This document shows positions 11,690 to 29,822 of a stretch of DNA of 64,000 nucleotides, piece after piece. Source of the DNA: Alphaproteobacteria bacterium. GTDB lineage: Bacteria > Pseudomonadota > Alphaproteobacteria > Micropepsales > Micropepsaceae. The position numbers and the translations under genes were made by a program. The first letter of the stretch is position 1; each line of letters begins with the position of its first letter. The DNA is taken from contig PLJH01000141.1 in assembly GCA_003139615.1 (NCBI GenBank), positions 1 through 64,000 of the forward strand, in the 5' to 3' direction. The notes beneath the pieces were generated by a model. It saw only the letters and a list, made by a program, of their open reading frames with translations, did not search any database and had not been told where the DNA came from.

Positions 11690-12883
11690 TCAATGCCGAG
11701 ACAAAAAGTTGAGCGTTCCAGTCAGATACGAGTAAAAGGACGCCGGTATGCTTGTGACGTCAGAACTTTCGTCCGCGCCATGGAGGTTTTCATAGCTGAC
11801 CCCCAATCCACAGATGGTCGGTATTCCAAATGTGGAAAGCAAGTTCCCAATATTTGAGGGACCACAAATTTCCGGCAAGATCGGTTTGTTGAAAGCGTCT
11901 TGCCCTGCGTCGAGAAAACTTCTGACGAGGTCCGAATTCTTGTCGACCGCGTAAGCCGGCCAGGACTGGTCGAACTCGATGGTAGTTTTCGTGGGAGAAG
12001 GCACCTTGGCGTCCAGGCGCACGACCAATTCATCTAGCCACCTGCGGGCTGTGGATGCGTCAAACGTCGGTGTAATTCGAATGTCGATATTGCAGGTCGC
12101 CTTGTCAGGAATTTGGCTAAAGCCACGGCCACCGTGAATCTCGGTTATGGACGCGACGGGACCAAGGGGAAACTCGTCGCTCGCGTCGGGTAGCGGTGCG
12201 TCTCTTAACATCGAGATCAGGGCCGCGAGCTTGTCGATCGCGTTGATCCCTCTTCGGGTTGTCGCTCCTGAATGAGCCGCTGTACCAAAGACGCTAATTC
12301 GTGCCCTGAAGAACCCTCGCGCGCCAACGACAAGTTTTTCATTGCCGGGATAAGCAAGGACGACCGCTTGTGGCGCGGGCGATATGTGTTCAATGAACGA
12401 GCGAACGCCGCCGAATTGACCGGTGTGTTCGTCGGCGTCAAATAACAGGTGGATTACGCCGGCCTCAAGCAATCGACCCTGCGTGATAAAATCAGCGACA
12501 TGAGCAATAATCGAAGCGCCGACCTTCGAATCTGCAGATCCCCTGCCCCGTAGCCTATTGGCCACGATGCTCCCGTCAGTCGGTGAAAAGGACCACGAAT
12601 TGGCATCTCCAAACGGAGCGGTGTCTAAACAGGCGTTGAGACAGATTGATGGACCTCTGGTTCGCCCTTCGCATTTTGCAACGAGCGCGACCTTGTTACG
12701 CTCATGATCGGTGAGAAAAGTCGGGTGTAGAGCGCGGGCTTCCAGCCACGCCGCCATTCGATAGAGCACGGGTTCAGCGCTGTCGATCCCTGCCTGGGAC
12801 GGGTCAGACACGAGTTCTGACGCGAGCTTCTCGATGCTTGCGGTCGGAACCGATTCCGTTAGGCGACTAGCGCCCGAACTCAT
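11690..12883 (-). CDS. M20-family metallopeptidase (ArgE/DapE-like) with altered metal site
   Basis: The protein has 397 residues and M20 architecture: ICLNACLDTAPFGD near residue 84 (family LLxGHxDxVP), GRGSADSKVG, then LFDADEHTGQFGG, a dimerisation lid (GFFRARISVFGTAAHSGATT) and a C-terminal VSYENLHGADES. Members cleave amide bonds of small peptides or N-acyl amino acids. The usual first metal-binding His is Cys here, and the EP-type ligand motif is replaced by AYPG, so the metal site is unusual or inactive. Its ATG overlaps the stop of the upstream HTH gene (ATGA at 12880-12883), showing an operon. Confidence 0.8.
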   Translation of the reverse strand: MSSGASRLTESVPTASIEKLASELVSDPSQAGIDSAEPVLYRMAAWLEARALHPTFLTDHERNKVALVAKCEGRTRGPSICLNACLDTAPFGDANSWSFSPTDGSIVANRLRGRGSADSKVGASIIAHVADFITQGRLLEAGVIHLLFDADEHTGQFGGVRSFIEHISPAPQAVVLAYPGNEKLVVGARGFFRARISVFGTAAHSGATTRRGINAIDKLAALISMLRDAPLPDASDEFPLGPVASITEIHGGRGFSQIPDKATCNIDIRITPTFDASTARRWLDELVVRLDAKVPSPTKTTIEFDQSWPAYAVDKNSDLVRSFLDAGQDAFNKPILPEICGPSNIGNLLSTFGIPTICGLGVSYENLHGADESSDVTSIPASFYSYLTGTLNFLSRH

Positions 12884-13638
12884 CTATATTCCCTTTCCAG
12901 TTTTGTGATTTCGGCAGTGGAGCTGATCGGCTTACCCGCTCTATACATTTCCTCGATCCACCGGTGCCATCCCTCGATAACCGCCGGCTCTTCAAATACG
13001 ACTGCGGTATCATATCTCCAAGCTCCATGGATCGACGGAAGCACAAATAGCGCCATGCGTTCATTCAGGCAAATCGTTGCCTCCAACGGATATGTCCTGA
13101 CACTCGCATAAACTCCAATCGATATCGTCTGGCGCGGCTCCTCGTTGCCATCTCGAATGTCGATTATTCGCCTCAAATGCTGCACCATCTGAGGCGTCAA
13201 GGGCGTACCAAAAAGTATTCGAAAATATGCGAGCGATGGGTTTTCGGTGACGCGTTGCTCGATAGCATCTAGGTATTCGCCGTCTCGTGACCGTGAGCCG
13301 GTTGCGCAAAGAAATTTACTCGCCGCCCCAACTATCTCCAGATTCGTTTTAAGTATTTCCTCTGACGTTGTCAGCAATCGCGGCGCCGAAAATTCCAAAG
13401 TCAGATCTCGAGGCTTAATGCCGAGCGCAGAGGCGATCGTGAACAATGTCCGCGGCTGAATTCGCTTGTGAGGATTTGATTCGGCATCCTTGATGACCTT
13501 GCGAGAGAGACCAAATTCCTCGCAAAACGATTCTTGGCTATATCCCTGCTTTTTTCTCTCGGCTGCTAGGAAATTGCCGTCGATCAGCACTCCGGAAGGT
13601 CGTCCAGCGGATCGCTCGGGACCTGACGCGGATTCCAT
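12880..13638 (-). CDS. XRE-family regulator with a C-terminal sensor-like domain
   Basis: The protein has 252 residues from the ATG at 13638, chosen for the GGGGGAG 6 bases upstream (an ATG at 13653 is possible). An XRE HTH lies near residues 20-75: LAAERKKQGYSQESFCEEFG, then SRKVIKDAE and SALGIKPRDL. The C-terminal ~150 residues (AYFRILFGTPLTPQMVQHLR, then ICLNERMALFVLPSI) resemble a PLD-like but catalytically empty domain found behind HTHs; this is tentative. It is coupled to the M20 gene and probably controls it. Confidence 0.75.
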   Translation of the reverse strand: MESASGPERSAGRPSGVLIDGNFLAAERKKQGYSQESFCEEFGLSRKVIKDAESNPHKRIQPRTLFTIASALGIKPRDLTLEFSAPRLLTTSEEILKTNLEIVGAASKFLCATGSRSRDGEYLDAIEQRVTENPSLAYFRILFGTPLTPQMVQHLRRIIDIRDGNEEPRQTISIGVYASVRTYPLEATICLNERMALFVLPSIHGAWRYDTAVVFEEPAVIEGWHRWIEEMYRAGKPISSTAEITKLEREYR

Positions 13639-13689
13639 ATGTGTCTCCCCCATGATAAGATATTACCATAAGGCGATGCGCGCGAGCCG

Positions 13690-14229: not shown

Positions 14230-16005
14230 TTAGTCGTTCTCGGCTTTGTCGAGATCGCGAGCTGCTGCAAGCCGTTCGCGAAATGCCTTCGCGATCCCCG
14301 ATGCCTGGACGTGGATTCCAATTTCCGCGCGCAGGTAATCCGTGGATGGGTCGGCCGAAAGCCAGTTCAAGCTTGTCACCACGATATTGTCATCGTCCCA
14401 GCATAAGACTTTTGCGTGAATCCGAGGTTTGAGTACGGGAGCCAGTTTGACGCCCTCAGAGCGAAGTAACTCGGTCTCGCGCAGCGCATCGGCCGGCGTC
14501 ACGGGCCGGCTCACGCGACCGTAATAAACGGTAGGTGCGACATTGCGCGCCCGCGACGCTGCCGTTAGCGCCTTGAGAACCGGCTTCGCTGCGGCACCGA
14601 GACGATGACTCAGAAGCAGGATCTCACGCGTACTCTCGTCCCGTGCAAGATGCAGCGGCTGCGCGTGCTCGGCGCCGAGAACCAGCTGTACGCGGGCGCG
14701 CGCACGAGGCGACGGAGGAAGCTGCTCCAAGATTTGTCCCAGCCGCGCTAACTCAGACGCGAGATCGGGAATTTGGCCGTCACGCGGACGAGCCAGTTCT
14801 GCGAGTTCAAAGGCGATGTCGGCGACAATGGCCGGGTCGCGTAACCGCACGGTCGCCTCGAAACTATAGAACCCGCTACTGAGCCAATTGCAGGATCCGA
14901 TGAGTGCCGCGTAGCGGTCGGGATCGCCGAGGTCGTACAGTACTAGCTTGGCATGCGATCGAGTCGAGGTCTGATGCACGCGGATGCGATCATCGATGCC
15001 CTCGTGCGCGAGAATCTCACGCAAGGCTAGGGCAGCTTTTCGTGTCTGGTTGACTTCGTCCTTGTTGTCGGACTGACCCCACAGAATGTCGATGCGAGTA
15101 CCGCGTTCGGCGCACGCGCGCATGAGTGGTAACGCGGCCTTGGCGTGTGCCAGGTTCACAAAGGTTGAATGGAGAATGACCCGGTGTGTCGCTTTGGCAA
15201 ACACCGCCTCAAAAACGTCGCGATGCTGCTGTCCGTCCAGGATCAAGTCGTCGGAATGAAATTCGACCTGTCGCTGCTGATGGAGGCGCTTCTCAGCAAC
15301 CGCGGGCGCGTCGACTGTGACGGCCGCTGAGCTGCTCTGCGCTTGCGTGCTGGTATCCCTTGCGACGTCGAGAATGATCTTCCGGAGCGCGATCGGGACA
15401 TCTGTGCCAAGTCCCGCGATTTCGTCTCCGCGCACGGCCACCAACGCGATGCGTCGCCGTGGGCGCACATCGGTAACATCCACGCGGGTGAGAACCTCAT
15501 CCGGTTCAAGCAGCGTATCAGCCAAGCGTCGAATCTCCGGCGGGTTGGAGTCAGACGCGTTCTGGGTTGGGCTGATCAGCACGGCAGCGCGACCCTGCGT
15601 GCGCGCGCGCCACTGGTTTTCCGGTGTCGTCGTCAGATCGCGGCCGCGAAAAATCGTACCAGTAAGTTGGTCTACCGCAAAGCTCAGGAAGCGGGCTGCA
15701 GATTTGGTAACCGGCGGCAGTTCGTCGCGCGTCGCATTGAGGCGTCCAAGCGGCGTCGATCTGAACACGACCGTCCCTCCGGTTGTGAGCAGTTCGACCC
15801 AGCCTACGCGCATGAGGCGGATCAGAATCTCGATCAAGACGCGCCGGGGCAGGTCGGAGGCGGTCTGCAAGGCCGCGATGGTCCAATCGTCCTTGGCGAG
15901 CGCTTCAAGGACGAAGTGCTCGAATACGGTCCAACGACGGCCCTTCTCGAAGTGGAAGCGGCGGATGTCCTTGAGGACCGGGATGCCAACAATGAGTGTC
16001 TTCAT
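14230..16005 (-). CDS. Phospholipase D-superfamily protein with two HxK motifs (putative nuclease effector)
   Basis: The protein has 591 residues. The ATG at 16005 overlaps the helicase stop (ATGA at 16002-16005). Two PLD motifs are clear: SHAKLVLYD near residue 350, followed by ALIGSCNWLSSGF, and IHAKVLCWDDD near 528, followed by VVTSLNWLS. The His and Lys of both are intact, so it should be catalytic, cutting nucleic acid or phospholipid. The N-terminal ~120 residues look like a winged helix (LEALAKDDWTIAALQTASDL). PLD proteins paired with large helicases occur in several defence systems (for example DrmC of DISARM). It is the last gene of the conjugation operon. Confidence 0.8.
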   Translation of the reverse strand: MKTLIVGIPVLKDIRRFHFEKGRRWTVFEHFVLEALAKDDWTIAALQTASDLPRRVLIEILIRLMRVGWVELLTTGGTVVFRSTPLGRLNATRDELPPVTKSAARFLSFAVDQLTGTIFRGRDLTTTPENQWRARTQGRAAVLISPTQNASDSNPPEIRRLADTLLEPDEVLTRVDVTDVRPRRRIALVAVRGDEIAGLGTDVPIALRKIILDVARDTSTQAQSSSAAVTVDAPAVAEKRLHQQRQVEFHSDDLILDGQQHRDVFEAVFAKATHRVILHSTFVNLAHAKAALPLMRACAERGTRIDILWGQSDNKDEVNQTRKAALALREILAHEGIDDRIRVHQTSTRSHAKLVLYDLGDPDRYAALIGSCNWLSSGFYSFEATVRLRDPAIVADIAFELAELARPRDGQIPDLASELARLGQILEQLPPSPRARARVQLVLGAEHAQPLHLARDESTREILLLSHRLGAAAKPVLKALTAASRARNVAPTVYYGRVSRPVTPADALRETELLRSEGVKLAPVLKPRIHAKVLCWDDDNIVVTSLNWLSADPSTDYLRAEIGIHVQASGIAKAFRERLAAARDLDKAEND

Positions 16006-19000
16006 GGCATCGGCCCCGCCAGCTGACTGGGCAGAATGCGAGCCGCTGTCCCCTGCGCGAAGCAATCGTCGAGACCGGCCAGAAGATCACGCAGAAATGC
16101 GGCTTCCGGTTCTTTCTCCAATCCGAGAGGTATCGCGACAGTACGCAAGAACTCCAGGCTGGTGACGAAGTACAGGCGCCAGCGCGCCCTGCTGAGCAGG
16201 ACGTTCATGCGCCGTGGGTCGCTGATGAAGCCCAAGGCGCGCCGCAACGTGGCATGGTGATTGTTGCGCACGAGTGAGACCACGATCGCATCGGCCTCGT
16301 TGCCCTGAAACGCATCAACCGTGCTGCACCAGGCGTTACCCCGTGCCACCGCCGTCAGCCGCGATAGCGCGGCCCGGCAATTGTCATCCTCAGCCAACTC
16401 CGTCCGCAAGCGAGTCACCTGCCTGGCATAGGGCGAAAGCACGGCGAGCGACGGTCGGCTGTCGGCGCTTGACGGTTTGAGGAGCTGCACGATGTCGCGA
16501 ACGGCCTGGACCTCGCCGGCGTTTGTAAAGCGGGGATGACGTTCGACGTTGCGGCTGCCGACCGTCGACTGCTGGTAGGGCATATCGACCACGACGATCG
16601 GCGTATCGGGTAGGCGCTTCGGATCCGCGCTGACGATCGGGCTCGGCGTGGAAGCGAATTTCGCTACCGCTTGCCGCCCCGTGCCGATGGCGCCGCCATA
16701 GAAACAGCTTGAAACAAGGCCAGCGATAGCGGGGTGCATGCGATGCTGAATCGTCAGGACGCGCGCGATGTTCGGCGGCCGGGCACCCGGCCTCTGCTGC
16801 CGCGCGGCTTCATCTTCGATCAGCGTTTGGAACAGAAACAGCATACGCTTGGCGTCGGCGCAGAGCTGACCGAATTCCGTGCCGGCGTCGTCGTCATCGA
16901 TCAACTCAGAGAGTTCATCGTCCACGACATCCCGGAGTGAGCGCTCCGTAAGTTCGAGCCCGAGACGTAGCGCGTTACGTAGACGCTCGGGGTCGTTCAG
17001 CAGATCGTCTGCCTTTTCGGCGCCGAACGGTGGCAACTGCTTATGATCGCCGATCATCAAGCGACGATGCGAGAGGAGCAGTGGCATCAGGAGTTCAATC
17101 CCAGTGGCCTTACCGGCTTCTTCAACGATGGCCCAATCAAACTGCCCCTTCTCGTCCACCAGCCGTTCCAGGTCGGCAGAGTTGGTTGTCGCGAAAACGA
17201 CGTTCGCCGCGCGCATCACGAGCCCTTCGAGCGCACGGACTTCTGCCCGGGTCGCACCCGGGTGGGCCGCTGTCCCGCCGACGGCGGAGCGCAGCGCCTC
17301 GACCAAGCGAGGCGTGGCGCTGCGCGCCAGATCGCTGGCGGCGAGGCGGCTGGCAAGCCTGCGCGTCTGGCTTGCTAGGTCCAACGCGGTAGTGGCGTCA
17401 TTGCCCTCAGGACCTGAGCAACGGACCGCGAGCGGGTGCCCTGCCGACTGCGTCTGCCAGTCTTGCTGCAGCTCCGAGACAAGATGGTCGACGGAGTGAT
17501 GGCTCTGGGCGGTCAGCAAGATGCGCGCCGCCGGTTCGTCGGCGAACCGCCGGCGGACGACCTCCCGAACGAGGAAGGTCTTTCCGACGCCGGGTGGGCC
17601 TTGCAGCAGATAGAGCGGAAGGATGCCGATCAATTCCTTCAAGGCGCCTTGTTTGGCGTCGTCCAGGCGGGCGAGGAAGGCATCGTCTTGTACCGTTTCA
17701 TGGGTCTCGATGAGACCGCCGCGGGGGTCGGCCAGCATGCGCAGGAGTTCGCTATGTTCGCGCAGCCCACGCAGGGCGCGCGCGCGGCGCTGGAACTGCG
17801 CAATACGACCACGGAATTCGCCCGGGATAAGCAATCCTTCCGCAGGAGGAATGCTTACGGTTTGCGAGGGGATTCTGAAGATGAAGGTCGGGGCGCTGTC
17901 CTGGTCGGTGGTAGACTCGTACTGCAGCTCGACATCGCCGCGCGTGCGATTGCCAAGCGCGCGCGCCTCGGTAAACAGCCATCCCTCGTCATCAGAGATC
18001 GCGTCGCGCTCGAGTAGGTCTTGCAACCGGTTTTGCATCGAACGAAGCCCCAGCGCTTCCGTCAACTGGTTGCGCTCGGCATCTTCCAGGAGCTGAAAGC
18101 GCATCCGCGGCTCGGCATCCTCGCCAGCGACGGTCTCCGGAATGGCGGTAACTGGAAAGACCTCGGCCGACGCAAATACCAAATCCAGCGCGTGGAGCAG
18201 CGTGAAAGCGCGTCGCGTTCGGTCCTCACGGCTTGGCCGTCGTTGTTCGCCTTCCAGCTGGCGGATGATCCGATCCCAGTTGAGCGTGCGGCCTCGCAAG
18301 CGAGGAACGCGGTCGCGCGCCTCGCCCCCCAGCGTCATCAAGCTCAGAGCGGACGACGGAATGGCGCAGTTCTCGTCTACCGTCCCACGCCAAGAGTCCG
18401 CTTGGTCGGCGTCGCCGCAGAAGGCAAACTCCCACGTCGGCGTCTGAGCCTGTCCGACTCGGTACTGCCGCAGCGGGTAGACGAGATCGTTACCGCGCAG
18501 GAAAAGACGCAATGTGTCAGCGGCGCGTGTGGCGATGATGCGTGGTTCCGCGCTGAGATCAGCGCTCACGAACTCCCGCTGTAGATCAATGTCGTCGGTT
18601 TCGATGGTCGAACCGCTAGCTTCGCGGATGGCACGCGAGAGATCGCTGTCGCGACCCAGTGCAAGGATCACAAAATACTTCGCCTCGTCGGCAGCGGCCG
18701 CCGTCTCCAACAGCGAGACGATACGGTCCAGGCGCTGGACGACAAAATCGCCGTCGAGTTGCGTCAGGGTTGCCGGATAGAGGAGTTCGCGGAGCAAGGC
18801 TATCTCGTCGGCGGATGTATGATCGGCGACGGCATGGGAGGGTATCTTCAGGTCGAGCACACGATCGACGCGGACATTGAGGAGGCGAGCACAGAGTTTC
18901 GCGAAAGCGGCCCAGTCGTCGAGAAAAGATACCGCTACGACGTTAGTATGACGGGTACGATTGCTGGCGGAGCCGAGCAAGCGCATCGACCATTCAAAGC

Positions 19001-19589
19001 CAGTCAACTGGAAGTCGAGATCGGAGCCGCCAGCGGTCAACACGGACCAGGCATCGAGATTGCAATGCAAGAGCCCTTGGCTGTGAAGGATTTCGAGGGC
19101 GAGCGCAACACGACGCAGGTTTTCCCAGAGCTGACGACGTCTGTTGGGCGCCGACATGGAACGCAGCCACTCGGTCCCGCGCCGGTTGGGATCGAGCAAG
19201 ATCTCCGCCGGTTGGCGTAGACCGGCGCCGATGACGATGTAGAAGCCGCGTTCGTCCTGGCCGGCATCCACTAAGCGTCCGATGTATTCGTCCGCGCCAG
19301 GGCTGCCACCGAGACGGTGCAGGACGCGCAATTCGTTTCTCCAAATGTCGACGAGATCGCCGTCGTCAACATGAGCGCCGCGCGGCCAGACGCGGACGAG
19401 TACCGGATTGCCGTCGGCCGAGACGCCTTCGATGATTCCGGGGACACCGGTGGCGCGTCCGGGTTTGAGCAGATAGGTCTCTCCCGGCCGATATTTAGCG
19501 AGAAATTCGCCGCGGCGGCTTCGGCGCGGCCTGGCGGCGCTGGTCTTCTTCGTCTTCTTCGTCTTCTTCTTCGTCTTGCTAGCTGTCAT
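16002..19589 (-). CDS. Kinase-like domain fused to a UPF1-type SF1 helicase
   Basis: About 1,195 residues. After a Lys-rich start (ASKTKKKTKKTKKTS), an N-terminal protein-kinase-like domain carries LEILHSQGLLHCNLDAWSVL where kinases have HRDLKPEN, and LTGFEW for DFG, so it is probably a pseudokinase. The C-terminal half is an SF1 helicase: LLQGPPGVGKTFLVREVV near residue 660, WAIVEEAGKATG near 820, MIGDHKQLPPF, then LTIQHRMHP, VLSPYARQ and TVDAFQGNEADAIVVSLVRN. I use the ATG at 19589; a TTG at 19643 in the same frame is possible and neither start has a good ribosome site. It follows the MBL gene closely and is coupled to the PLD gene. Confidence 0.85.
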   Translation of the reverse strand: MTASKTKKKTKKTKKTSAARPRRSRRGEFLAKYRPGETYLLKPGRATGVPGIIEGVSADGNPVLVRVWPRGAHVDDGDLVDIWRNELRVLHRLGGSPGADEYIGRLVDAGQDERGFYIVIGAGLRQPAEILLDPNRRGTEWLRSMSAPNRRRQLWENLRRVALALEILHSQGLLHCNLDAWSVLTAGGSDLDFQLTGFEWSMRLLGSASNRTRHTNVVAVSFLDDWAAFAKLCARLLNVRVDRVLDLKIPSHAVADHTSADEIALLRELLYPATLTQLDGDFVVQRLDRIVSLLETAAAADEAKYFVILALGRDSDLSRAIREASGSTIETDDIDLQREFVSADLSAEPRIIATRAADTLRLFLRGNDLVYPLRQYRVGQAQTPTWEFAFCGDADQADSWRGTVDENCAIPSSALSLMTLGGEARDRVPRLRGRTLNWDRIIRQLEGEQRRPSREDRTRRAFTLLHALDLVFASAEVFPVTAIPETVAGEDAEPRMRFQLLEDAERNQLTEALGLRSMQNRLQDLLERDAISDDEGWLFTEARALGNRTRGDVELQYESTTDQDSAPTFIFRIPSQTVSIPPAEGLLIPGEFRGRIAQFQRRARALRGLREHSELLRMLADPRGGLIETHETVQDDAFLARLDDAKQGALKELIGILPLYLLQGPPGVGKTFLVREVVRRRFADEPAARILLTAQSHHSVDHLVSELQQDWQTQSAGHPLAVRCSGPEGNDATTALDLASQTRRLASRLAASDLARSATPRLVEALRSAVGGTAAHPGATRAEVRALEGLVMRAANVVFATTNSADLERLVDEKGQFDWAIVEEAGKATGIELLMPLLLSHRRLMIGDHKQLPPFGAEKADDLLNDPERLRNALRLGLELTERSLRDVVDDELSELIDDDDAGTEFGQLCADAKRMLFLFQTLIEDEAARQQRPGARPPNIARVLTIQHRMHPAIAGLVSSCFYGGAIGTGRQAVAKFASTPSPIVSADPKRLPDTPIVVVDMPYQQSTVGSRNVERHPRFTNAGEVQAVRDIVQLLKPSSADSRPSLAVLSPYARQVTRLRTELAEDDNCRAALSRLTAVARGNAWCSTVDAFQGNEADAIVVSLVRNNHHATLRRALGFISDPRRMNVLLSRARWRLYFVTSLEFLRTVAIPLGLEKEPEAAFLRDLLAGLDDCFAQGTAARILPSQLAGPMP

Positions 19590-19651
19590 GGAACTGCTTT
19601 GGGTTTTAGCCGGTGTGGAGCGGACGAATAGTCGTCCTCTCAAAAAATACG

Positions 19652-20509
19652 CTACGCCGCCGCGACGGCGGCGTGTTGGAATGTGAGGGTCTCAAAATTC
19701 GATCCCTTACGGCGCGTCAGCAGATTCTTGCCCACGCCGCCCGCATTGGTCGCCCAAACATGTTCGGCCACCGCCTGGTACGCCTGGATCGAAGCACCGT
19801 GGGGGTGATCGTACTGGCTATCGACACCCGCGCTAACCAGCACCGTGTTGGGACTGATATTGAGCAAAGCCTTGGGATAGACGCCGGAGATCGATCCGTG
19901 GTGCGACGCCGCCATTACGTCAGCGACGAGCTTGTCGCCGAACAAACGGCTGATCGTTTCCCAACGGTCGATTTCGGTGTCGCCGGTGGCGAGATAGCGA
20001 AACCCTTCTGCGCCATTGCCCACGATCTTCGCTACAATGCTGCAATTGTTGGAGGAGTCCATGTCCTCGAAATGCGGCGAGAACAGCTCGACGGTGAAGG
20101 TCTTCCCGAGGCCTTCAATGGTGCGGGTGTCCATCTTGTCAAGGCGAATAGAGTGCCGCACGAGCGGCCGCGATGTTGAGGCCCGCCGGCGCTCATGCTT
20201 GTTGATCGAATTGAAAACTGCGGTGGCGCAGTCCGTGTCCTTGTAATATTTGGGATACATGATCCACGCAGGCTGAAAATTCGACAGGATCCATTCGACG
20301 CCCAGATCGTGTGCATGATCGGAATCGAAGCCCGTCAGGATGAGCCCCCGGACATCGATCCCCTTGAAGTAAGTCGATAAGGTTTGCTGGATTTCCTCGG
20401 GACTGACCTTTTCGCATTGGGGCATGTGGGCATCGACAATGACGCCTTCGCCTCCGACCCGAATCCCGGCAAGCGCGCCTTGATCGACAAACAGCGTTAG
20501 AACATCCAT
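19652..20509 (-). CDS. Metallo-beta-lactamase-fold hydrolase (ComEC-like)
   Basis: The protein has 285 residues and no signal peptide. ComEC-type MBL motifs are seen: TGFDSDHAHDL near residue 59 (family THxDxDH; the first His is Gly here), ATGDTE near 175 and ASHHGS near 202. Most metal ligands are kept, so activity on nucleic acids or phosphoesters is possible. The start overlaps the JAB gene end by 13 bases. As I recall, MBL proteins have been noted beside bacterial E1-E2-JAB gene sets in comparative genomics; the role is unknown. Confidence 0.8.
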   Translation of the reverse strand: MDVLTLFVDQGALAGIRVGGEGVIVDAHMPQCEKVSPEEIQQTLSTYFKGIDVRGLILTGFDSDHAHDLGVEWILSNFQPAWIMYPKYYKDTDCATAVFNSINKHERRRASTSRPLVRHSIRLDKMDTRTIEGLGKTFTVELFSPHFEDMDSSNNCSIVAKIVGNGAEGFRYLATGDTEIDRWETISRLFGDKLVADVMAASHHGSISGVYPKALLNISPNTVLVSAGVDSQYDHPHGASIQAYQAVAEHVWATNAGGVGKNLLTRRKGSNFETLTFQHAAVAAA

Positions 20510-21432
20510 AGCCGCCCCCGCTTCTTCTTGTGAGATAGTTCCGCGACCAGTTGCGCGTTGCAGGCGCGTTCAGTTGCGATCAGTGCGGCGCGCGCGCTGG
20601 GAAACGAATTTTTGCCGAGCGCCTTTGTTACCGGTTCAAGATTTGCGTGCGGATTGCGCAGCGTGACGCTGCAGACCGACGTGTCGGCGTCGCGCAGAAC
20701 CACAACCTCTTGGTCCGAGCCATCGGCCAATGTGATATCGCCCCGCCAATAGATGCCGAGTTCCTTCGATTGTAGCGTTTTCACCTTCGTGAAGAACTGC
20801 GAGATCGCGTCATGATCCTGGACGAGGTCTGCGTTGGCGACGACGGTGTCGCGCGGCGGCGTGTGTCTGCGTGCGGGCATGGTCTCCTTCGCGATGGGCC
20901 AGACCAACGGCGCGTCGACCAAGCTCACGTCATTCGCTGCAATTTCGTAGACGGTCTCATCACCACGCCGCATCAGGTAGTTCTTGAAGAGGTAGCGTTG
21001 CAGGCCCGTCTTGCCGGGCACTTTCTCGGTGACCAGAAGGGCATAGAAGAAATCGATGTTGTGTTTGCTGTGTCCGACGATCCGGCGATAAGTCTGAATG
21101 TCGCCGCTGCTCAGGTGGTGCAACCCGTTTACGTGATGGGTGTGCCAATTGCCCAAATGCTCGATCGACGGCAAGTGATCTTCGATCTGGCGGAAAACCT
21201 TTTCCTGATATTCGCCGTCCTGCTTGAAATAGGTCTGGGTGCGCTGGGCATTGGGGCCGGGCTCGATCACCCCGTTGACCGTCAGGCTGAGCCTGTTCCC
21301 CGCGGCATTGTAGGTGCCCAGGATACGGCCGCCGGTCTCATCGACGTTATACCGGTCGCATTCGTCGAAGACGGCCTCGATCGCGGCACGTGGGATTTCG
21401 AGCTTGATGTTGTCGGCGCGGGTGAACATCAC
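20497..21432 (-). CDS. JAB/JAMM metallopeptidase (deubiquitinase-like)
   Basis: The protein has 311 residues. The N-terminal Mov34/MPN domain has Glu32 in VDETGGRILGTY, and GNWHTHHVNGLHHLSSGD gives His97, His99, Ser108 and Asp111, the JAMM zinc site (spacing one residue longer than usual). Such enzymes cleave isopeptide bonds or trim ubiquitin-like precursors. The C-terminal ~130 residues (LGIYWRGDITLADGSDQEVV...) form a separate domain I do not recognise. The ATG overlaps the E1 stop (ATGA at 21429-21432). Confidence 0.88.
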   Translation of the reverse strand: MMFTRADNIKLEIPRAAIEAVFDECDRYNVDETGGRILGTYNAAGNRLSLTVNGVIEPGPNAQRTQTYFKQDGEYQEKVFRQIEDHLPSIEHLGNWHTHHVNGLHHLSSGDIQTYRRIVGHSKHNIDFFYALLVTEKVPGKTGLQRYLFKNYLMRRGDETVYEIAANDVSLVDAPLVWPIAKETMPARRHTPPRDTVVANADLVQDHDAISQFFTKVKTLQSKELGIYWRGDITLADGSDQEVVVLRDADTSVCSVTLRNPHANLEPVTKALGKNSFPSARAALIATERACNAQLVAELSHKKKRGRLWMF

Positions 21433-22277
21433 GATGTGTGCTCCTCACAGACGCGGCACCCATTGATGGGGGGCAGCGCAAACCGCTGCACCTGGAAGTG
21501 CTTGTCGAACGGATGCACCGGCCGGTTTCCCCAGGCGAGATAATTCTGCTCGATCGGCTCCATGTTCTTCGGCCGTTCGGGCAAGCCCCTCGCGATCGCG
21601 TCCAGCGCGTAGCGGGTGTGGAAGTTGGTGATGAAGGCGATATCGACGTTAAGACCCGGCGAATCCTTGATCTCGGCGACCGGTAGGCCGTACATGGCAT
21701 CCCGCTCTTCCTGACTGACGAGATCGATCTCGCGGATGCGCTCGCGCTGTGGCTTGCGCTCAAGAAACATCTCAAGGCAGCCCAGGCAGCCGGTCTCTTT
21801 CGGACGATAGGCGTAGACTTCGCCACCGATGCCGCGGGTGAACACTCGCCCCACGACGAACGGCGTGCCGGTCCGCACGCAGGCCTCATTCAGACGATAG
21901 CGTGACGGTTCATTGTCGGTGGCCAGGATCACAACGCCGGCGCCGCGCACCCGATCATCCAGATCCGGCAACGCCATCAGATCCTGGTTATGGAGTTCGG
22001 CATGGACGTCGGGATTGCGGTCCTTGAGAAGATCGGCGACCGCGTCCGTCTTGTTCCAGCCGATATAGCGAAGACCGCAGGCGTGACGGATGACGTTTTC
22101 CTCGCCCAGCGTCTGATTGTCATAAAGTGCGAAATTGCGGACGCCCGACATCGCGAGCTGAAGCGCAACCTGGCTTCCGCCAGATCCGCAGCCGGCAACG
22201 ACCACCTTTGCCTGACCGAGCAGACCCACGTCGTATAGGCGCTCGATGCGCTCAAACAGTCTGCTTTTGCCGTCCAT
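21429..22277 (-). CDS. ThiF/E1-like adenylyltransferase
   Basis: The protein has 282 residues. The nucleotide loop is VVVAGCGSGGSQ at residues 26-36. Typical ThiF/E1 features follow: LYDNQTLGEENVIRH, then ATDNEPSRYRLNEA near 120. Two CxxC pairs (164/167 and 274/277) probably bind zinc. No obvious separate catalytic-cysteine domain is seen, so it may pass the activated modifier directly to an E2. It overlaps the upstream fused E2 gene by 26 bases. Confidence 0.88.
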   Translation of the reverse strand: MDGKSRLFERIERLYDVGLLGQAKVVVAGCGSGGSQVALQLAMSGVRNFALYDNQTLGEENVIRHACGLRYIGWNKTDAVADLLKDRNPDVHAELHNQDLMALPDLDDRVRGAGVVILATDNEPSRYRLNEACVRTGTPFVVGRVFTRGIGGEVYAYRPKETGCLGCLEMFLERKPQRERIREIDLVSQEERDAMYGLPVAEIKDSPGLNVDIAFITNFHTRYALDAIARGLPERPKNMEPIEQNYLAWGNRPVHPFDKHFQVQRFALPPINGCRVCEEHTS

Positions 22278-22803
22278 CCCCTACTCCCAAAAGCGGCCAC
22301 TCGCCGGTGTGTCGCCACGTTTCGTAGCGGCCGATCCAACGGCGCGCGTTGTCCAGCGCATCGCGCGCCGTGTTCTTGCCCGGATTCCAGGAACTCATAA
22401 CGCCGAAAATGCAGAGCGCGCCATCGGCGAAGCGGTGCGGCGCGTCTTCGTCGACAGAGTCGACATAAACCCGCGGGCATGCGTTGGGATAGTTGTGGGG
22501 CAGCGTGATCGCGATCACGTATGTTTTGTCGCCATGCTCATGCTTGATGCGAATGGCGACCTCTTTGTTGTCGGTGATGGTCGTGTTCGCGACTTCGCCT
22601 GCCTGTTGCAGCGCGTCGAGTTCTTGCGCGATGCGGGCGGGCGAGACATCCGGCAGGAAAACCGAAATCGGCACCAAGCACGCCTGACGCCGACCATTGC
22701 GTTCAATCACAAAGGCCTCGCCATGATCGACGACGCGATCGAGAATCTCGCCGGGCCGCGATCGCAGCTCCGTCATCGGGAGCGGTGTGAAATCGAGTCT
22801 CAT
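22252..22803 (-). CDS. Phd/YefM antitoxin-like domain fused to an E2-like conjugating enzyme
   Basis: The protein has 183 residues from the ATG at 22803, which overlaps the upstream stop (ATGA). Residues 1-60 match the Phd/YefM fold: MTELRSRPGEILDRVVDHGE, then AFVIERNGRRQACLVPISVF. Residues ~70-170 are UBC/E2-like: KTYVIAITLPHNYPNACPRV, then DGALCIFG with candidate catalytic Cys131 and SWNPGKNTARDALDNARRW. The fusion is unusual. The Phd part could bind DNA and autoregulate the operon, or bind a partner; this is inference. Confidence 0.8.
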   Translation of the reverse strand: MRLDFTPLPMTELRSRPGEILDRVVDHGEAFVIERNGRRQACLVPISVFLPDVSPARIAQELDALQQAGEVANTTITDNKEVAIRIKHEHGDKTYVIAITLPHNYPNACPRVYVDSVDEDAPHRFADGALCIFGVMSSWNPGKNTARDALDNARRWIGRYETWRHTGEWPLLGVGDGRQKQTV

Positions 22804-23180
22804 CCTGTGTGCGCCAGCGACGGCCCGGGCCAGCGATTGGTGGCGAGATACACCTGGTGCTTGTTGAGCCAGACCGCTGCCTGCCCCAACGCGTATTTGA
22901 GGTCGTGACGCGCGGGGTTCCAGACGCTCGGGTGCATGTAGCAAATGTGCCCGTCCTGATACATGTGCATGCCGTGCTTCACTGCCGGCGTGATCACCGT
23001 CACCCTCGGCATCACCGAGGGATATCCGGCGAAGGTGACCATGATGATGTACACCTGACCGACCGAGGTCTGCAGCGCGGCCTTGATGTAGAGCCCGCCG
23101 TCAGTGGTCGTGTAGGTCTCGATGTTCGGGAAGTGCTCCGCCGCCACCCGGATGTCGATCTGCAAACGCTGCAAGTCCAT
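22800..23180 (-). CDS. E2-like ubiquitin-conjugating enzyme
   Basis: The protein has 126 residues with a UBC-type core: YIIMVTFAGYPSVMPRVTVI, then MHMYQDGHICYMHPSVWNP with candidate catalytic Cys80 and the WNP motif at 87-89. The Cys-to-WNP layout is shared with the next E2 gene. E2 enzymes carry a thioester-linked modifier to a target. The start shares one base with the preceding stop (TAATG at 23178-23182), so it is coupled to the 60-aa protein. Confidence 0.83.
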   Translation of the reverse strand: MDLQRLQIDIRVAAEHFPNIETYTTTDGGLYIKAALQTSVGQVYIIMVTFAGYPSVMPRVTVITPAVKHGMHMYQDGHICYMHPSVWNPARHDLKYALGQAAVWLNKHQVYLATNRWPGPSLAHTG

Positions 23181-23362
23181 TACACCGGCTCCCCGTATTC
23201 GCCGCCCAGATCTTCGCGCATCGTCAGCGGCTTGCGGCCGCCGCGCTCGGTGGTGGTGGTTTGGTTCTTGGCGCGCACCTCGCCGTTGGGGAGAATCTCG
23301 ATCTCCACCTCGTCTTCGCGCTGCAGGATCGCCTCGAGTTCTGCGATAGACGGCCTGGCCAT
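23180..23362 (-). CDS. Small acidic protein with a near-C-terminal Gly-Gly, first gene of the conjugation operon
   Basis: The protein has 60 residues: MARPSIAELEAILQREDEVE, a short beta-like stretch (IEILPNGEVRA) and an end of EDLGGEYGEPV. It is strongly acidic at the N-terminus and too short for a full ubiquitin fold. The LGG followed by six residues resembles a modifier precursor that a JAB peptidase could trim to a terminal Gly-Gly. That role is inference; it could instead be a regulator or scaffold. AGGGAA lies ~8 bases before the ATG. Confidence 0.65.
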   Translation of the reverse strand: MARPSIAELEAILQREDEVEIEILPNGEVRAKNQTTTTERGGRKPLTMREDLGGEYGEPV

Positions 23363-23505: not shown

Positions 23506-24696
23506 ATGGATATCGAAAAGAGAGACCTCAGCGGCTCTCCCAACTTTGGTCTGGCGCTTTCGGGCGGTGGGGTTCGCGCGGCCGTTTTCCATCTGGGTGT
23601 TTTGCGCTGCCTTGCCGATCACGGGGCAATGGAACACGTGAGCCATCTTTCGACGGTCTCAGGCGGCAGTCTCATCACCGCCGCGGTGATGATGGCGAGC
23701 GCCATGCGGTGGCCGAGCTCGACCGAATATCGCGACAGCGTCTATCCGCGGCTGAGAGAACTGCTGACGACGCGCGATCTGTTCAGCCTCAAAGCGCTTG
23801 GGACCCGCGGCGTGTTGCGGCACAATTTGAAACTGCTGAGCCGACGCGCCGAGATCCTCGTCGACCTGCTTCAGCTTCAATGGAATATCAACGCGAGCCT
23901 CAGCGATCTGCCGGAGACGCCCGTCTGGTGGATCAACGCCACGAGCTTTGAGTCTGGAAAGAACTGGCGGTTCTCAAAACGTGAGATGGGAGATTGGCGG
24001 TTTGGACGCCACTACGCTCCGCCGTTCAGTCTCGCACAGGCTGTGGCTGCGTCGGCGGCCGTGCCTTACGCGATCGGTGCCTTACGATTCGCACTTCCGC
24101 GCAGCGGTTGGTATGCGACCGATCCGGCCACTCGCAAACCGTTGAACGCGATCGAACCACCCGCGGATGCCATCCACCTGTGGGACGGGGGCGCTTACGA
24201 AAATTTGGGTCTCGAACCGCTCTACAAACCGGCCCAAGGACTGTTGGGGTGTAACTTTCTGATTTGCAGCGACGCGTCGGGGCCACTTTCGACCACGCCG
24301 GCGCATCACTTGCGCACCTTGTTCAATGGCCGGCTCGCCAGTCCGCGCCTGTTCGACATTGCTAGCGACCAGATCCGCGCGTTGCGCAGCCGGATGTTCG
24401 TGGGCTCCATCGGGCGCGGCGAGATTCAAGGGGCGCTGCTGCGCATGGGAAACACCGCGCGCAGTCTCGATGTCAAATCGGGACGCACCGGAGTAGAGTC
24501 AAGATACGATGATTTCCTATCCGATGCCGACGTAGCGGTCGCCGCGAGCCATCCGACCGATCTCAACGCGTTGTCGATCGAGGCGTTCGATAGGCTTGCG
24601 CGACACGGTTACGAAGTCGCTGATCACACTCTCACCACCTATATTCCACAGCACTTCATAAGCTCAGCTCACGCCAGGTCGGCAGACTCGACGTGA
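23506..24696 (+). CDS. Patatin-like phospholipase
   Basis: The protein has 396 residues from the ATG at 23506, which starts just before the domain. The oxyanion loop is SGGGVRAA at residues 19-26, the nucleophile is Ser52 in STVSGGS, and the catalytic Asp is in WDGGAYENLGL near 227. All patatin elements are present, so lipid hydrolysis is likely. Patatin-like phospholipases serve as membrane-damaging effectors in CBASS (CapV), but no cyclic-nucleotide synthase is visible here. It is divergent from the E2-E1-JAB operon and its 3' end overlaps a convergent small gene by 28 bases. Confidence 0.85.
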   Translation: MDIEKRDLSGSPNFGLALSGGGVRAAVFHLGVLRCLADHGAMEHVSHLSTVSGGSLITAAVMMASAMRWPSSTEYRDSVYPRLRELLTTRDLFSLKALGTRGVLRHNLKLLSRRAEILVDLLQLQWNINASLSDLPETPVWWINATSFESGKNWRFSKREMGDWRFGRHYAPPFSLAQAVAASAAVPYAIGALRFALPRSGWYATDPATRKPLNAIEPPADAIHLWDGGAYENLGLEPLYKPAQGLLGCNFLICSDASGPLSTTPAHHLRTLFNGRLASPRLFDIASDQIRALRSRMFVGSIGRGEIQGALLRMGNTARSLDVKSGRTGVESRYDDFLSDADVAVAASHPTDLNALSIEAFDRLARHGYEVADHTLTTYIPQHFISSAHARSADST

Positions 24697-24902: not shown

Positions 24903-25595
24903 TCAAGGGTCCGCAGGTTGTGGTTGGGAGTCGTAGTGCTCGATACCTTCGTAGCGCTTAACTGCCAACGCGAGCTGTTTGGTTATTGGAAGCACTAGAA
25001 ACTCGCAGACCATGACAGCGAACCAGCTGAAGGTCGCAGCAGATGCAATCGTGCTGATGGCAAGAACTCCTCCGAACGCGATTCCGTAGAATGTAATTCC
25101 ATTCACAATCTGGGCAATTCCAACCGCGGTCAACGCTCGTCCATAAAAGAATCGCGCACGCGTTCTAACCTTCAGGCGGGACATAACAAACGAGTTCATC
25201 AGCTCGGTAACGAAGTACGCAACGATACTCGCCGTCACTATCCGTGGAGTTTGAGAGAACAGTGCTTTGAATGCAGGATCGTTTGTATACCCATTCGCGG
25301 GCTGCAAGAGCACAGCCGCTTGAAGGAATAGTGCATACAGGACGAGGCACCCAAGTCCGACGTAGAGCAGGCGGCGGACCCGCCGGTAGCCGTAGACTTC
25401 CGCCATTATGTCCGCGATAATTAGCGAGAACACATAGCTGAGCTGTGACGCGATTACAGACATTCCGTAGATGTTAATGAATTTGAGGTTCAGAACGTTG
25501 GTAATGAGCATGAGCGCCATCATGACCATCGCAAAATAAATCAGCCCTTTTGGCTGCCAGGTGTCTCCCACCCTTACCGTAAGCTCCTTCGCCAT
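24903..25595 (-). CDS. VUT (YhhQ)-family transporter, queuosine-precursor type
   Basis: A 230-residue polytopic inner-membrane protein. The family pattern is visible: LIYFAMVMMALMLITNVLNL, FINIYGMSVIASQLSYVFSL, IIADIMAEVYGY and a late AYFVTELMNSFVMSRLK. YhhQ-type proteins import 7-deazapurine precursors of queuosine; some occur beside DNA 7-deazaguanine modification genes, but none of those is visible here. The start codon interlocks with the divergent FRG gene (CATG at 25593-25596). Confidence 0.8.
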   Translation of the reverse strand: MAKELTVRVGDTWQPKGLIYFAMVMMALMLITNVLNLKFINIYGMSVIASQLSYVFSLIIADIMAEVYGYRRVRRLLYVGLGCLVLYALFLQAAVLLQPANGYTNDPAFKALFSQTPRIVTASIVAYFVTELMNSFVMSRLKVRTRARFFYGRALTAVGIAQIVNGITFYGIAFGGVLAISTIASAATFSWFAVMVCEFLVLPITKQLALAVKRYEGIEHYDSQPQPADP

Positions 25596-26400
25596 GCGCT
25601 ATCTCCCACCGATCGAATGCGATGAAGTCCATTACGCCTCATGGCGGGACTTCAAAGCCGGGTTTGGCGACTACCTTAGCAAACACCACCACGGAATAGA
25701 ACACCACTTCGTCTTTCGCGGGCAACGAGAAGCGCGATGGCCGCTCCAAACAAAGTTCGATCGCGATTTGGGACAGTTGCCGGGGAAGGCCAGCGAGCAC
25801 CGAAAGAATCTTTTGACTGCTTTCAAGCGTCAACTCATGCTCGCCGGCGAAACGTTACCAGACCCTAAGTTACCCCACGCCGATGCACGGACCTTTGCGC
25901 TGGGGCAACACTACGAACTTCCTACGCCGTTATTAGATTGGTCAGTAAGTCCCTACGTTGCCGCGTTTTTTGCCTGCGATGGGGCAGTGCAGACGATCAG
26001 CGTAAATTCTGCGAGAGAGGTGAGAGTGCTCGAAGATCGCCTTGCAATCTTTGCGCTTCGCCGTTATGGCTGCGATGATGACTGGAAGAAAATGAAAGTC
26101 AAATTCATTGAAGATGATGCTCCGGCGAATAAGCGCATTAGGCCGCAGCTTGGGCTCTTCACGCTTACGCCGCACAAATACGCCTCGCTCGAAGCGTGCA
26201 TCGGCAGCTACTGTCGAATCGCAAAGGTTCCGATCGAGAAGTTCCTCACTAAGTTTACGTTGCCCTACAACGCTGCGTTTGGAGCGCTTGCGGATCTCGA
26301 ACTGATGGATATTACCGCCAGGCGAATTTACGCGGATATCGATGGTATTAGCCGATCAGCTGCATTGCGAGTGCGCTTAGCTGCGCTACACGAGTCTTAG
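25594..26400 (+). CDS. FRG-domain protein
   Basis: The protein has 268 residues. The FRG signature FVFRGQREARWPLQTKFDRD is near residue 40, and GQHYELPTPLLDWSVSPYVA near 105 is typical of the family. FRG proteins are named for the Phe-Arg-Gly motif and often occur in defence and mobile regions; their chemistry is not settled. The ATG at 25594 shares bases with the start codon of the divergent VUT gene; an in-frame start at 25561 would overlap that gene more. Confidence 0.8.
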   Translation: MRYLPPIECDEVHYASWRDFKAGFGDYLSKHHHGIEHHFVFRGQREARWPLQTKFDRDLGQLPGKASEHRKNLLTAFKRQLMLAGETLPDPKLPHADARTFALGQHYELPTPLLDWSVSPYVAAFFACDGAVQTISVNSAREVRVLEDRLAIFALRRYGCDDDWKKMKVKFIEDDAPANKRIRPQLGLFTLTPHKYASLEACIGSYCRIAKVPIEKFLTKFTLPYNAAFGALADLELMDITARRIYADIDGISRSAALRVRLAALHES

Positions 26401-28328: not shown

Positions 28329-29822
28329 ATGGCTGACGAGAAGGGATATCTCAGTTTACTTTCTAGTGTCGGGATTACGCTTCATCACCCCGACGGCCTC
28401 ACGACAATCCCCACGCCCATAGGGGTGTCACGGCGCGCTCTTCTTGCGGAGGCATCTGCACTCGCGCTCAGTCCACTTTCCCACAATTCGCTAGCAGGTC
28501 GCATCGCGCAGCAAATTCGTACCAGCCGCGAACCGGACCTGCCATCAGCTCCGGTCCCCGGCTCTATAACTCCACTGGATTTTTCACAAGCAGACGAATG
28601 TGACGGTCGGCTCTATTTCTCATCTGTCCGATTTTCGTCTGACCAGTTGATTGAGCGACTTGAGAAGCTCGGGTTGAAGCTGCAGGAGCAATTGGAAACA
28701 GACGAAGGCGATATTGACGAACAAATTAATCCTGCGCGGGTAGCGGCAATCGCTGAGGTCATCCGTCGAACTGATGGCCGTGTCATAGGCGGAGGTAAGG
28801 GCCTCACTCGTCAAGCCGCTCGGGTCGGAGCCATTGCTGAAGCTGCCGAACGCGTCGTTGGAGCGAATCCAAAGGTTCCTGTATTTGTAAACTCAGCGCG
28901 CCGTCTTCGCGAAGAGCACGGCTTATTGATTCCTAGATTCGACGTTGGACCACGCGATGCCTACTCGGACGATCTGGTTATTGATTGGGTCAAAGGTCAG
29001 ACGCTGGATGGCATCGTCGTCGGTCTGCCTGCTGAGCGCGCTCTTTATGACTACGCTCCTCGTTCTGGAGTTTCAGCATTTACGTGGCAACACACAGCAG
29101 GACTCGCGGCGGGAAGCTCGCGTGAGGAAGCGATATGGGCTGGATTATCCGAATTGATGGAGCGGGACGCGTATTGGCTTGCTATGCGATGTCGCGCTAG
29201 ATGTCCAACAATTGACAATTCCATTGTGTTCGACGCACGGCCGAAACTGGCGGCAGCGCTTGGGAGAGCCGGCCTCAGAATTATCATGAGGAATTTTTCC
29301 CTCGACTGGCCGCTGACTATTGTAAGCGCTGTCGCTGTTGATGTCACAGGTCGGATTCCCGCTTTTGCTCATGGCATGGGCTCTGGCACCAACTTGGCGG
29401 CAGCAGCACTAAAAGCGCTGCTGGAATGTCTACAACTGCACTTCGGGTTGTCTCGTCGTTGCAGCGAAGCAAGACAGGCTGTTTTGTTCGGCGAAGTTTG
29501 TCGGCGTCCTGATCTCGCCTGGAGCGATCCCGGCTCAGCACAAGAGCTGGATCATCTCCTCAGCGCTGACGTCGATGGGTTCGCCATTCCCGATCAATCT
29601 GCAAACCAGGACAGTCAGAATATACTTCGGCTTATTCGCGAAAAGTCAGGAGATATATTTTGGGTTGATCTCGGTGAACTCGAAGGTGTGCATGTGGTTA
29701 GAGTCTATTTGCCGGATGCTTTGCTCCCGGAGCCCAATCTTGAACATGTACCGGCTCGACTAGCAACCTGGCTGAGACGGGCCAACCTACGATATGCGTA
29801 TGCTATTCCGATCTTGACTTGA
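28329..29822 (+). CDS. YcaO-domain protein (ATP-dependent peptide-backbone modifier)
   Basis: The protein has 497 residues. The YcaO domain starts near residue 155: GKGLTRQAARVGAIAEAAER, a central AGLAAGSSREEAIWAGLSEL followed by MERDAYW near 275, then AHGMGSGTNLAAAALKALLE. These are the ATP-binding Glu/Arg motifs of YcaO, which makes azolines, thioamides or amidines in peptides, or aids RimO in the housekeeping form. The N-terminal ~150 residues are non-standard and could bind the peptide. No dehydrogenase, E1-like partner or exporter is adjacent, so the locus may be minimal or degraded. Confidence 0.8.
   Translation: MADEKGYLSLLSSVGITLHHPDGLTTIPTPIGVSRRALLAEASALALSPLSHNSLAGRIAQQIRTSREPDLPSAPVPGSITPLDFSQADECDGRLYFSSVRFSSDQLIERLEKLGLKLQEQLETDEGDIDEQINPARVAAIAEVIRRTDGRVIGGGKGLTRQAARVGAIAEAAERVVGANPKVPVFVNSARRLREEHGLLIPRFDVGPRDAYSDDLVIDWVKGQTLDGIVVGLPAERALYDYAPRSGVSAFTWQHTAGLAAGSSREEAIWAGLSELMERDAYWLAMRCRARCPTIDNSIVFDARPKLAAALGRAGLRIIMRNFSLDWPLTIVSAVAVDVTGRIPAFAHGMGSGTNLAAAALKALLECLQLHFGLSRRCSEARQAVLFGEVCRRPDLAWSDPGSAQELDHLLSADVDGFAIPDQSANQDSQNILRLIREKSGDIFWVDLGELEGVHVVRVYLPDALLPEPNLEHVPARLATWLRRANLRYAYAIPILT

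What the first reader, a model, noticed from the sequence alone, without database searches (positions are those of the whole stretch)
14230..23362. Eight-gene ubiquitin-like conjugation operon with helicase and nuclease arms
In transcription order: a 60-aa protein, E2, Phd-E2, E1, JAB, MBL, kinase-like/UPF1 helicase, PLD. Genes overlap or are spaced by no more than about 60 bases, so they form one unit. E1, E2 and JAB together are known from bacterial ubiquitin-like systems; two E2s plus an SF1 helicase and a two-motif PLD protein in one operon is a combination I cannot place in a named system. I infer anti-phage or anti-plasmid defence.
Basis: partly seen in the sequence, partly recalled or inferred. 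Interest (0 to 1): 0.92.

Follow-up and report, generated by a model that had tools for sequence, protein, structure and literature searches.

The report
Ubiquitin-like operon beside Mokosh defence
The stretch holds two neighbouring probable anti-virus systems: the known two-gene Mokosh system, and a rare, apparently undescribed ubiquitin-style tagging operon whose first gene makes a tiny, very conserved peptide that may be the tag itself.

Summary
The eight genes are real, but they are probably not one system. The helicase and PLD genes are a type I Mokosh pair (PADLOC MkoA 846 bits, MkoB 302 bits). Closer Mokosh relatives stand alone on plasmids (3 of 3 opened), a terminator-like hairpin precedes the pair here, and the only other relative locus with Mokosh (L009) carries a different one (32% identity, against 69-87% for its core proteins). 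The other six genes (60-aa peptide, E2, Phd-E2, E1, JAB, ComEC-like MBL) recur in the same order in 22 loci from many phyla, nearly all uncultured. I read the core as the conjugation/deconjugation module of a membrane-attacking defence system, a split relative of the 6A-MBL system. I found no beta-grasp modifier in it. The best candidate tag is the peptide: predicted mostly unstructured, ending in an invariant LGGEY plus a variable tail, and the slowest-evolving gene of the operon. Lone copies occur in uncultivated phages. No experiment was done; defence and tagging are inferred.

The parts
23180..23362 (-). 60-aa peptide (PEP), first gene of the core; candidate modifier: ILPNGE(I/V)R and KP(I/L)T(M/L)xE(D/N/Q)LGGEY, variable tail
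   Evidence: Found in 21 of 22 loci, one of them (L017) only as a 5'-truncated match; no match in PADLOC, Pfam, NCBIfam or PHROGs at E 0.1 or in PDB at E 1; predicted helix 6-13 and short strands 21-23 and 29-31, rest unstructured, pTM 0.32; dN 0.07, dS 0.97 against L009
22800..23180 (-). E2 with complete catalytic site (H72, C80, W87, P89)
   Evidence: Those residues invariant in 22 of 22 sequences; its profile finds eukaryotic UBC enzymes in PDB, best E 2e-4
22252..22803 (-). Phd/YefM-like N-terminus fused to a second E2; start ATG at 22803
   Evidence: PF02604 and PADLOC E2; homologous to the first E2, hhalign 99.4%; catalytic Cys kept in 16 of 21, Ser in 4 and Ala in 1
21429..22277 (-). 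Stand-alone E1 (ThiF-type adenylation domain) with two conserved CxxC pairs
   Evidence: PF00899 8.7e-29; D53, H65, K76, D121 in 21 of 21 and seven Cys columns in 20-21 of 21; PDB relatives ThiF 3.4e-12 and MccB 9.5e-12
20497..21432 (-). JAB/JAMM isopeptidase (about 1-175) with an extra C-terminal alpha-beta domain (about 199-309)
   Evidence: E32, H97, H99, S108, D111 invariant in 21 of 21; model matches archaeal Rpn11 (Z 17.6) and Cap3 (Z 16.4) over the JAB part
19652..20509 (-). ComEC-like metallo-beta-lactamase-fold protein
   Evidence: TIGR00361 1.8e-17, 6A-MBL enzyme 2.6e-5; ComEC in PDB 3.4e-8; D64, H65 in 22 of 22 and D177, H203, H204, H235 in 21 of 22, the gap being the truncated L024
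19654..19674 (-). Terminator-like hairpin across the MBL stop codon, followed by T6
   Evidence: fold z -2.81; number of such hairpins in the region not above chance
23506..24696 (+). Patatin-like phospholipase, divergent; probable effector of the core
   Evidence: PF01734 1.9e-18; GGGxR, VSGGS and DGG motifs; divergent in L009 too, next gene after MBL in 8 other loci
16002..19589 (-). MkoA of Mokosh type I (separate neighbouring system)
   Evidence: PADLOC MkoA 1.2e-254; 44% to a stand-alone plasmid MkoA, 32% to the one in L009
14230..16005 (-). MkoB (PLD) of Mokosh type I (separate neighbouring system)
   Evidence: PADLOC MkoB 4e-90; HxK motifs at 371 and 550 of the long ORF

Best explanation
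Two adjacent defence systems. (1) A six-gene ubiquitin-type module plus a patatin. Shown by sequence: an E2 with its full catalytic site, a second E2 on a Phd-like domain, an adenylating E1, a JAMM isopeptidase and a ComEC-like MBL are co-inherited with a tiny peptide and are followed or flanked by one of two kinds of membrane-directed protein. Inferred: on infection or plasmid entry the E1 adenylates a small modifier, the E2 conjugates it to a target (effector, MBL or invader protein), the JAB trims the precursor and reverses the conjugation, and the patatin (or, elsewhere, the membrane protein) breaks the membrane; the Phd domain represses the operon or docks the second E2. The 60-aa peptide is the likeliest modifier, processed at or after LGGEY. 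(2) Mokosh type I, an ordinary helicase/PLD system that has landed downstream.
For: Same six-gene order and strand in 22 loci, apart from one undetected PEP (L016) and one undetected Phd-E2 (L028); pairwise distances of the six families correlate, r 0.57-0.90 over 18-20 loci, 0 of 999 permutations as high in each of 15 pairs. Catalytic residues kept. Patatin or membrane protein in 21 of 21 loci with a view: 8 patatin as next gene after MBL, 2 divergent, 4 further off beside or fused to 6A-MBL genes, 7 membrane protein. 6A-MBL genes above NCBIfam's cut-off in 5 of the 6 loci whose neighbours were scanned for them. Mokosh in 2 of 22 loci and of different descent; the three plasmid Mokosh pairs opened have no ubiquitin-type genes. 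No beta-grasp match for any operon protein, none in the peptide's model.
Against: No experiment. Defence is inferred from the exchanged effectors, the neighbours and the patchy spread. The peptide as modifier is not shown: EY is as invariant as GG and it is unclear why, and lone relatives occur in phages without E1 or E2 nearby. The window and its nearest relative L009 both carry a Mokosh downstream although the MkoA model rang in only 2 of the 288 other genomes of a class sample, so a functional tie is not excluded. That model also rang in 4 of 14 control genomes, so it picks up other helicases and 2 of 288 is an upper bound for Mokosh. The four patatins near 6A-MBL genes may belong to those systems. 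The window's E1 has no Cys between its CxxC pairs, where ThiF has its C184 (position recalled). The MBL lacks the usual first histidines (motif recalled).
Confidence: 0.6

Rival explanations
1. The conjugation module works like CBASS Cap2/Cap3 or 6A-MBL: the thing conjugated is another operon protein (MBL or effector) or a cell protein, and the peptide is a regulator, chaperone or sensor, not the tag.
For: The 6A-MBL Cap2_3 model is among the matches of E1 (2.2e-15) and the best of JAB (8.8e-11), and the 6A-MBL enzyme among those of the MBL (2.6e-5); CBASS Cap2 uses a non-Ubl substrate (review PMC12355090, passages seen). Lone phage copies of the peptide suggest a use outside the enzymes.
Against: MBL C-termini are variable, and 1 of 21 complete ones (L016) ends in glycine, whereas the peptide's C-terminal motif is invariant with a variable tail after it. 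In three phylum samples the peptide was found only in genomes known to hold the operon (capped numbers of candidates scored).
Confidence: 0.28
2. One reading: all eight genes are one defence system with helicase and nuclease arms.
For: Same strand, gap of 62 bases or less; in L009 too a Mokosh pair follows MBL.
Against: 20 of the 21 other loci show no Mokosh within the stretches held; the two Mokosh pairs are of different descent; spacer of about 760 bases in L009; terminator-like hairpin here; the plasmid Mokosh pairs opened stand alone.
Confidence: 0.07
3. Not defence: a peptide-modifying pathway in which the E1 adenylates the small peptide as MccB does in microcin C7, making a peptide product.
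For: MccB is among the closest solved relatives of the E1 by sequence; a YcaO gene lies 5 kb away.
Against: Two E2s and a JAMM protease are not expected in such a pathway (recalled); the C-terminal half of the peptide is invariant across phyla, unlike product peptides; the YcaO lies outside the conserved block.
Confidence: 0.08

Closest known systems
Mokosh type I (MkoA/MkoB)
   Same: Genes 16002-19589 and 14230-16005: UPF1-type helicase and PLD protein in tandem, strong PADLOC matches
   Different: Only its neighbour differs: it follows a ubiquitin-type operon
6A-MBL system (NCBIfam NF058523/NF058524; make-up of class 6a of Iyer et al. 2006, PMC1779556)
   Same: E2, E1, JAB and a special MBL; its genes lie beside the new operon in 5 loci, with patatin near
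   Different: 6A-MBL has one triple-fusion protein; here separate E2, Phd-E2, E1 and JAB polypeptides plus the peptide; scores against the 6A-MBL models (23-56 bits) are far below their cut-offs (220 and 320)
CBASS type II (Cap2/Cap3)
   Same: E1/E2/JAB logic; JAB model close to Cap3; patatin or membrane effectors (CBASS effectors recalled)
   Different: No nucleotidyltransferase in the operon; E1 and E2 not fused; extra E2, MBL and peptide
Bil (bacterial ISG15-like) operons
   Same: Separate E2, E1 and JAB genes
   Different: No beta-grasp Ubl found; two E2s, one on a Phd domain; MBL present (Bil make-up recalled)
Pup (prokaryotic ubiquitin-like protein) tagging
   Same: Small, mostly unstructured peptide with a conserved GG-E near its end (Pup features recalled)
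   Different: No Pup ligase in the operon; E1/E2/JAB enzymes instead; no sequence match

Membership tests
Mokosh type I | MkoA-type helicase gene | tested here: met
   PADLOC MkoA 846 bits, 1.2e-254, over residues 57-1173
Mokosh type I | MkoB PLD gene next to it | tested here: met
   PADLOC MkoB 302 bits; its ATG overlaps the MkoA stop
Mokosh type I | Anti-phage activity | not testable with these tools
   No bench test
6A-MBL | E2-E1-JAB triple fusion (cap2_3) above curated cut-off | tested here: not met
   Separate genes; E1 56 and JAB 41 bits against cut-off 320
6A-MBL | 6A-MBL enzyme above curated cut-off | tested here: not met
   23.5 bits against 220
CBASS type II | CD-NTase gene in the operon | tested here: not met
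   None of the eight genes or the patatin matches a nucleotidyltransferase in Pfam or NCBIfam at E 0.1; in PADLOC (eight genes) both E2s hit a cyclase model only over its E2-like end, positions 426-542
Bil | Beta-grasp ubiquitin-like protein gene | tested here: not met
   No Ubl match (for E1 25 of 32 PADLOC families were shown); peptide model has one helix and one hairpin, low confidence
Bil | E2, E1 and JAB as separate genes | tested here: met
Classes 6a-6e of Iyer et al. 2006 | Gene make-up of one of the five classes | tested here: not met
   Passages and Table 1 rows 6a-6e seen: none lists a Phd-E2, or separate E2, E1 and JAB with an MBL
Ubiquitin-type conjugation system (general) | E1 adenylation site, E2 catalytic Cys, JAMM motif | tested here: met
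   E1 21 of 21, E2 22 of 22, JAB 21 of 21
Ubiquitin-type conjugation system (general) | Covalent conjugates | not testable with these tools
   Needs protein chemistry
Pup system | Pup ligase and Pup sequence match in the operon | tested here: not met
   No Pup or ligase match for the eight genes

The most novel reading that the evidence does not exclude
The 60-aa peptide is a new, non-beta-grasp protein tag that an ordinary E1-E2-JAB machine activates, conjugates and removes, which would separate ubiquitin chemistry from the ubiquitin fold. Uncultivated phages carry stand-alone copies of the tag, in at least one case among their head genes, either as decoys that jam the machine or as the very thing it senses.
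Probability: 0.33. Interest if true: 0.9.

Novelty: new variant of a known kind. Interest (0 to 1): 0.64.

Why it matters
Every E1-E2 tagging system I can name (recalled) uses either a beta-grasp modifier or, in CBASS, a whole enzyme. An operon spread thinly over many phyla, with a full E1-E2-E2-JAB set, no beta-grasp gene that I could find and one ultra-conserved peptide of about 60 residues, makes it directly testable whether ubiquitin chemistry can run on an unstructured tag. The exchange of patatin for a membrane protein and the 6A-MBL neighbours give a clear path to a phage-plating test. Taking Mokosh out of the picture prevents a wrong 'eight-gene system' from entering the record.

Tried and rejected
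Eight genes as one system: set aside on synteny, descent of the Mokosh genes and spacing. JAB C-terminal domain as a third E2: the predicted order of elements (helix, four strands, two helices) suggested it, but profile comparison with the two E2 families gave 0.1% and 6% probability; left open, since the domain was not modelled alone and the structure list is filled by the JAB part. Peptide as a plain ThiS/MoaD-type Ubl: set aside on the model and lack of matches. E1 family in viral contigs: 35 stretches matched a pattern, none confirmed. Peptide in annotated phages: no match at E 1. Peptide tail motif on unrelated phage proteins: a pattern scan of viral contigs gave 13 stretches, all on contigs already found with the peptide.

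Literature: no paper held the four terms PLuB, ubiquitin, helicase and bacteria together; none held '6A-MBL'. Whether the six-gene core is in print: the listings (25 of 42; 20 of 20; 5 of 5; 15 of 51; 20 of 172, mostly off topic; 3 of 3) showed no title describing it; the library holds no bioRxiv collection and lacks most subscription papers, so this is weak. Papers: PMC1779556, PMC10952713 and PMC12355090 seen as passages; all others as search listings only.

Rows dropped: L006 and L007 are other ubiquitin-type systems and L008 is the same locus as L017, so they are not among the 22. L028 was left out of the E1 and Phd-E2 alignments (E1 in two pieces, no Phd-E2 found). L016 and L024 were left out of the distance test. 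L025 and some phage or partial copies are missing from A9; five rows of A5 begin inside the peptide (L012, L015, L018, L024, L025, by my choice of coordinates). Only proteins of L010, L016, L021, L022, L023 and L026 were scanned for 6A-MBL.
Full report
Observation. The eight ORFs lie on the minus strand as described, and their domains are as named. Six of them (60-aa peptide, E2, Phd-E2, E1, JAB, MBL) overlap end to start. Between MBL and the helicase's likely ATG there are 62 bases (8 if the upstream TTG is the start), with a 9-pair hairpin and T6 across the MBL stop; the scan expects about as many hairpins as it found, so this alone proves nothing. A patatin gene on the other strand, 143 bases from the peptide gene, was missed.

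Helicase and PLD. PADLOC models call them MkoA (846 bits) and MkoB (302 bits), the two genes of Mokosh type I. On plasmids 45 records match MkoA, 15 of them over at least 80% of its length; in the three best, which I opened, the pair stands without ubiquitin-type genes. The window's MkoA is 44% identical to that of an Ancylobacter plasmid and 32% to that of L009, the nearest relative of the core, whose six core proteins are 69-87% identical to the window's. In L009 about 760 bases separate MBL from MkoA. So the two Mokosh pairs seem to have arrived separately. The MkoA model rang in 3 of 289 genomes of the class, the window's own included, but also in 4 of 14 control genomes, so it catches other helicases. 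Two arrivals of a rare pair at the same spot may mean a hot spot or, less likely, cooperation.

The six-gene core. A scan of the genome collection with the E1 profile gave 20 loci; with a Mesorhizobium plasmid and the window this makes 22. By record titles the 20 are all MAGs, from Proteobacteria, Acidobacteria, Armatimonadetes, Omnitrophota, Binatia, Gemmatimonadetes, a planctomycete and one unnamed bacterium. By ORF search the order peptide, E2, Phd-E2, E1, JAB, MBL holds throughout; exceptions are L016 (no peptide found, E2 cut short), L017 (peptide only as a partial match), L028 (no Phd-E2 found, E1 in two pieces) and L024 (MBL cut by the contig end). Distances co-vary in all 15 family pairs (r 0.57-0.90; 0 of 999 permutations as high). 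The E1 is rare: 2 of 289 genomes of the class, the window's own included. The scan used two short patterns, so 22 is a lower bound.

Chemistry. The first E2 has its His, Cys, Trp and Pro in 22 of 22; the second keeps the Cys in 16 of 21 and has Ser or Ala in 5, so it is probably a helper in some lineages. The E1 keeps its nucleotide-site residues and two CxxC pairs. The JAB has the full JAMM set in 21 of 21 and models as an Rpn11/Cap3-like domain plus an unassigned second domain. The MBL is closest to ComEC and keeps D64, H65, D177, H203, H204 and H235, but not the usual first histidines (the usual motif is recalled).

The peptide. It is about 57-70 aa from its likeliest start, with ILPNGE, R30 and LGGEY invariant across 20 bacterial copies and a tail of 0-14 residues after LGGEY (none in five). 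In protein terms it is the slowest gene of the operon between window and L009 (dN 0.07, dS 0.97). Its model has a helix and a hairpin, the rest unstructured, mean pLDDT 70, pTM 0.32, so no ubiquitin fold is seen, with the caution due to such a model. In whole genomes it turned up only where the operon is: 18 of 19 operon genomes, with one extra strong match that is a second operon copy (L024) and one weak 25-residue match that I did not examine; 1 of 398 genomes of the window's phylum, 2 of 247 in a second phylum and 1 of 200 in a third, all known operon carriers. At most 15, 25 and about 31 candidates a genome were scored in those three, so lone copies could have been missed. In viral contigs 16 loci carry it or a part of it (L036/L037 and L042/L043 look like the same phages, and L047 lacks the LGGEY end) with no E1, E2 or JAB found in the stretch held; in L044 it sits between portal and major head genes. 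In L046 its tail ends a Phd-like protein, which is also why that one matched the Phd-E2 profile.

Effectors. Of 22 loci, 8 have a patatin as next gene after MBL, 2 (window, L009) a divergent patatin, 4 a patatin further on, beside or fused to 6A-MBL genes, 7 a protein with about four hydrophobic segments (in L014 after one other ORF), and 1 (L024) ends first. All 13 stand-alone patatins match PF01734, as does the fused one. The membrane proteins have no Pfam family above cut-off. Exchange of membrane effectors on a fixed core is the mark of signalling defence systems such as CBASS (recalled).

Reading. I take the core as a split relative of 6A-MBL that acts through conjugation and a membrane effector, with the peptide as the likeliest tag; the first part I hold at about 0.8, defence at 0.7, the peptide as tag at a third to a half. 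Nothing here was tested at the bench.

Comparison. The make-up fits none of classes 6a-6e in the passages seen of PMC1779556, fails the 6A-MBL cut-offs, lacks a CD-NTase and lacks a detectable beta-grasp Ubl. It is a new variant of bacterial ubiquitin-type systems; the Mokosh half is already known.

Noticed in passing
L032-L047 (uncultivated viral contigs): Stand-alone relatives of the 60-aa peptide in phage genomes, in L044 between portal and major head genes; in L046 the LGGEY tail ends a Phd-like protein.
   Followed up: partly
L016 12617-17258, L021 12610-16003, L022 13906-16221, L023 12713-16053, L026 12473-13591: 6A-MBL genes downstream of the new core, after the patatin in L026; in L016 the triple-fusion protein is further fused to a patatin.
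   Followed up: partly
L010 17369-20692: A second ubiquitin-type locus (676-aa protein with an E1 domain, JAB) next to a membrane protein that aligns with the core's membrane effectors.
   Followed up: no
L009 13009: A stretch in the MBL-MkoA spacer looks to me like the 3' end of a tRNA, a possible integration scar; ARAGORN finds no whole tRNA.
   Followed up: no
window 5697-7424, 7559-8782, 9451-11391, 59866-61059: Serine recombinase, coupling-protein-like ATPase, ParB-like protein and a tyrosine integrase: the window looks like a mobile island.
   Followed up: no
window 25561-26400 and 28329-29822: An FRG-domain protein and a YcaO-domain protein 2-5 kb beyond the peptide gene.
   Followed up: no
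window 11690-13653: Helix-turn-helix regulator next to an M20-family peptidase, downstream of Mokosh.
   Followed up: no
G655:C154 (L059): Weak 25-residue match to the peptide's C-terminal half inside a 384-aa frame (E 0.004).
   Followed up: no
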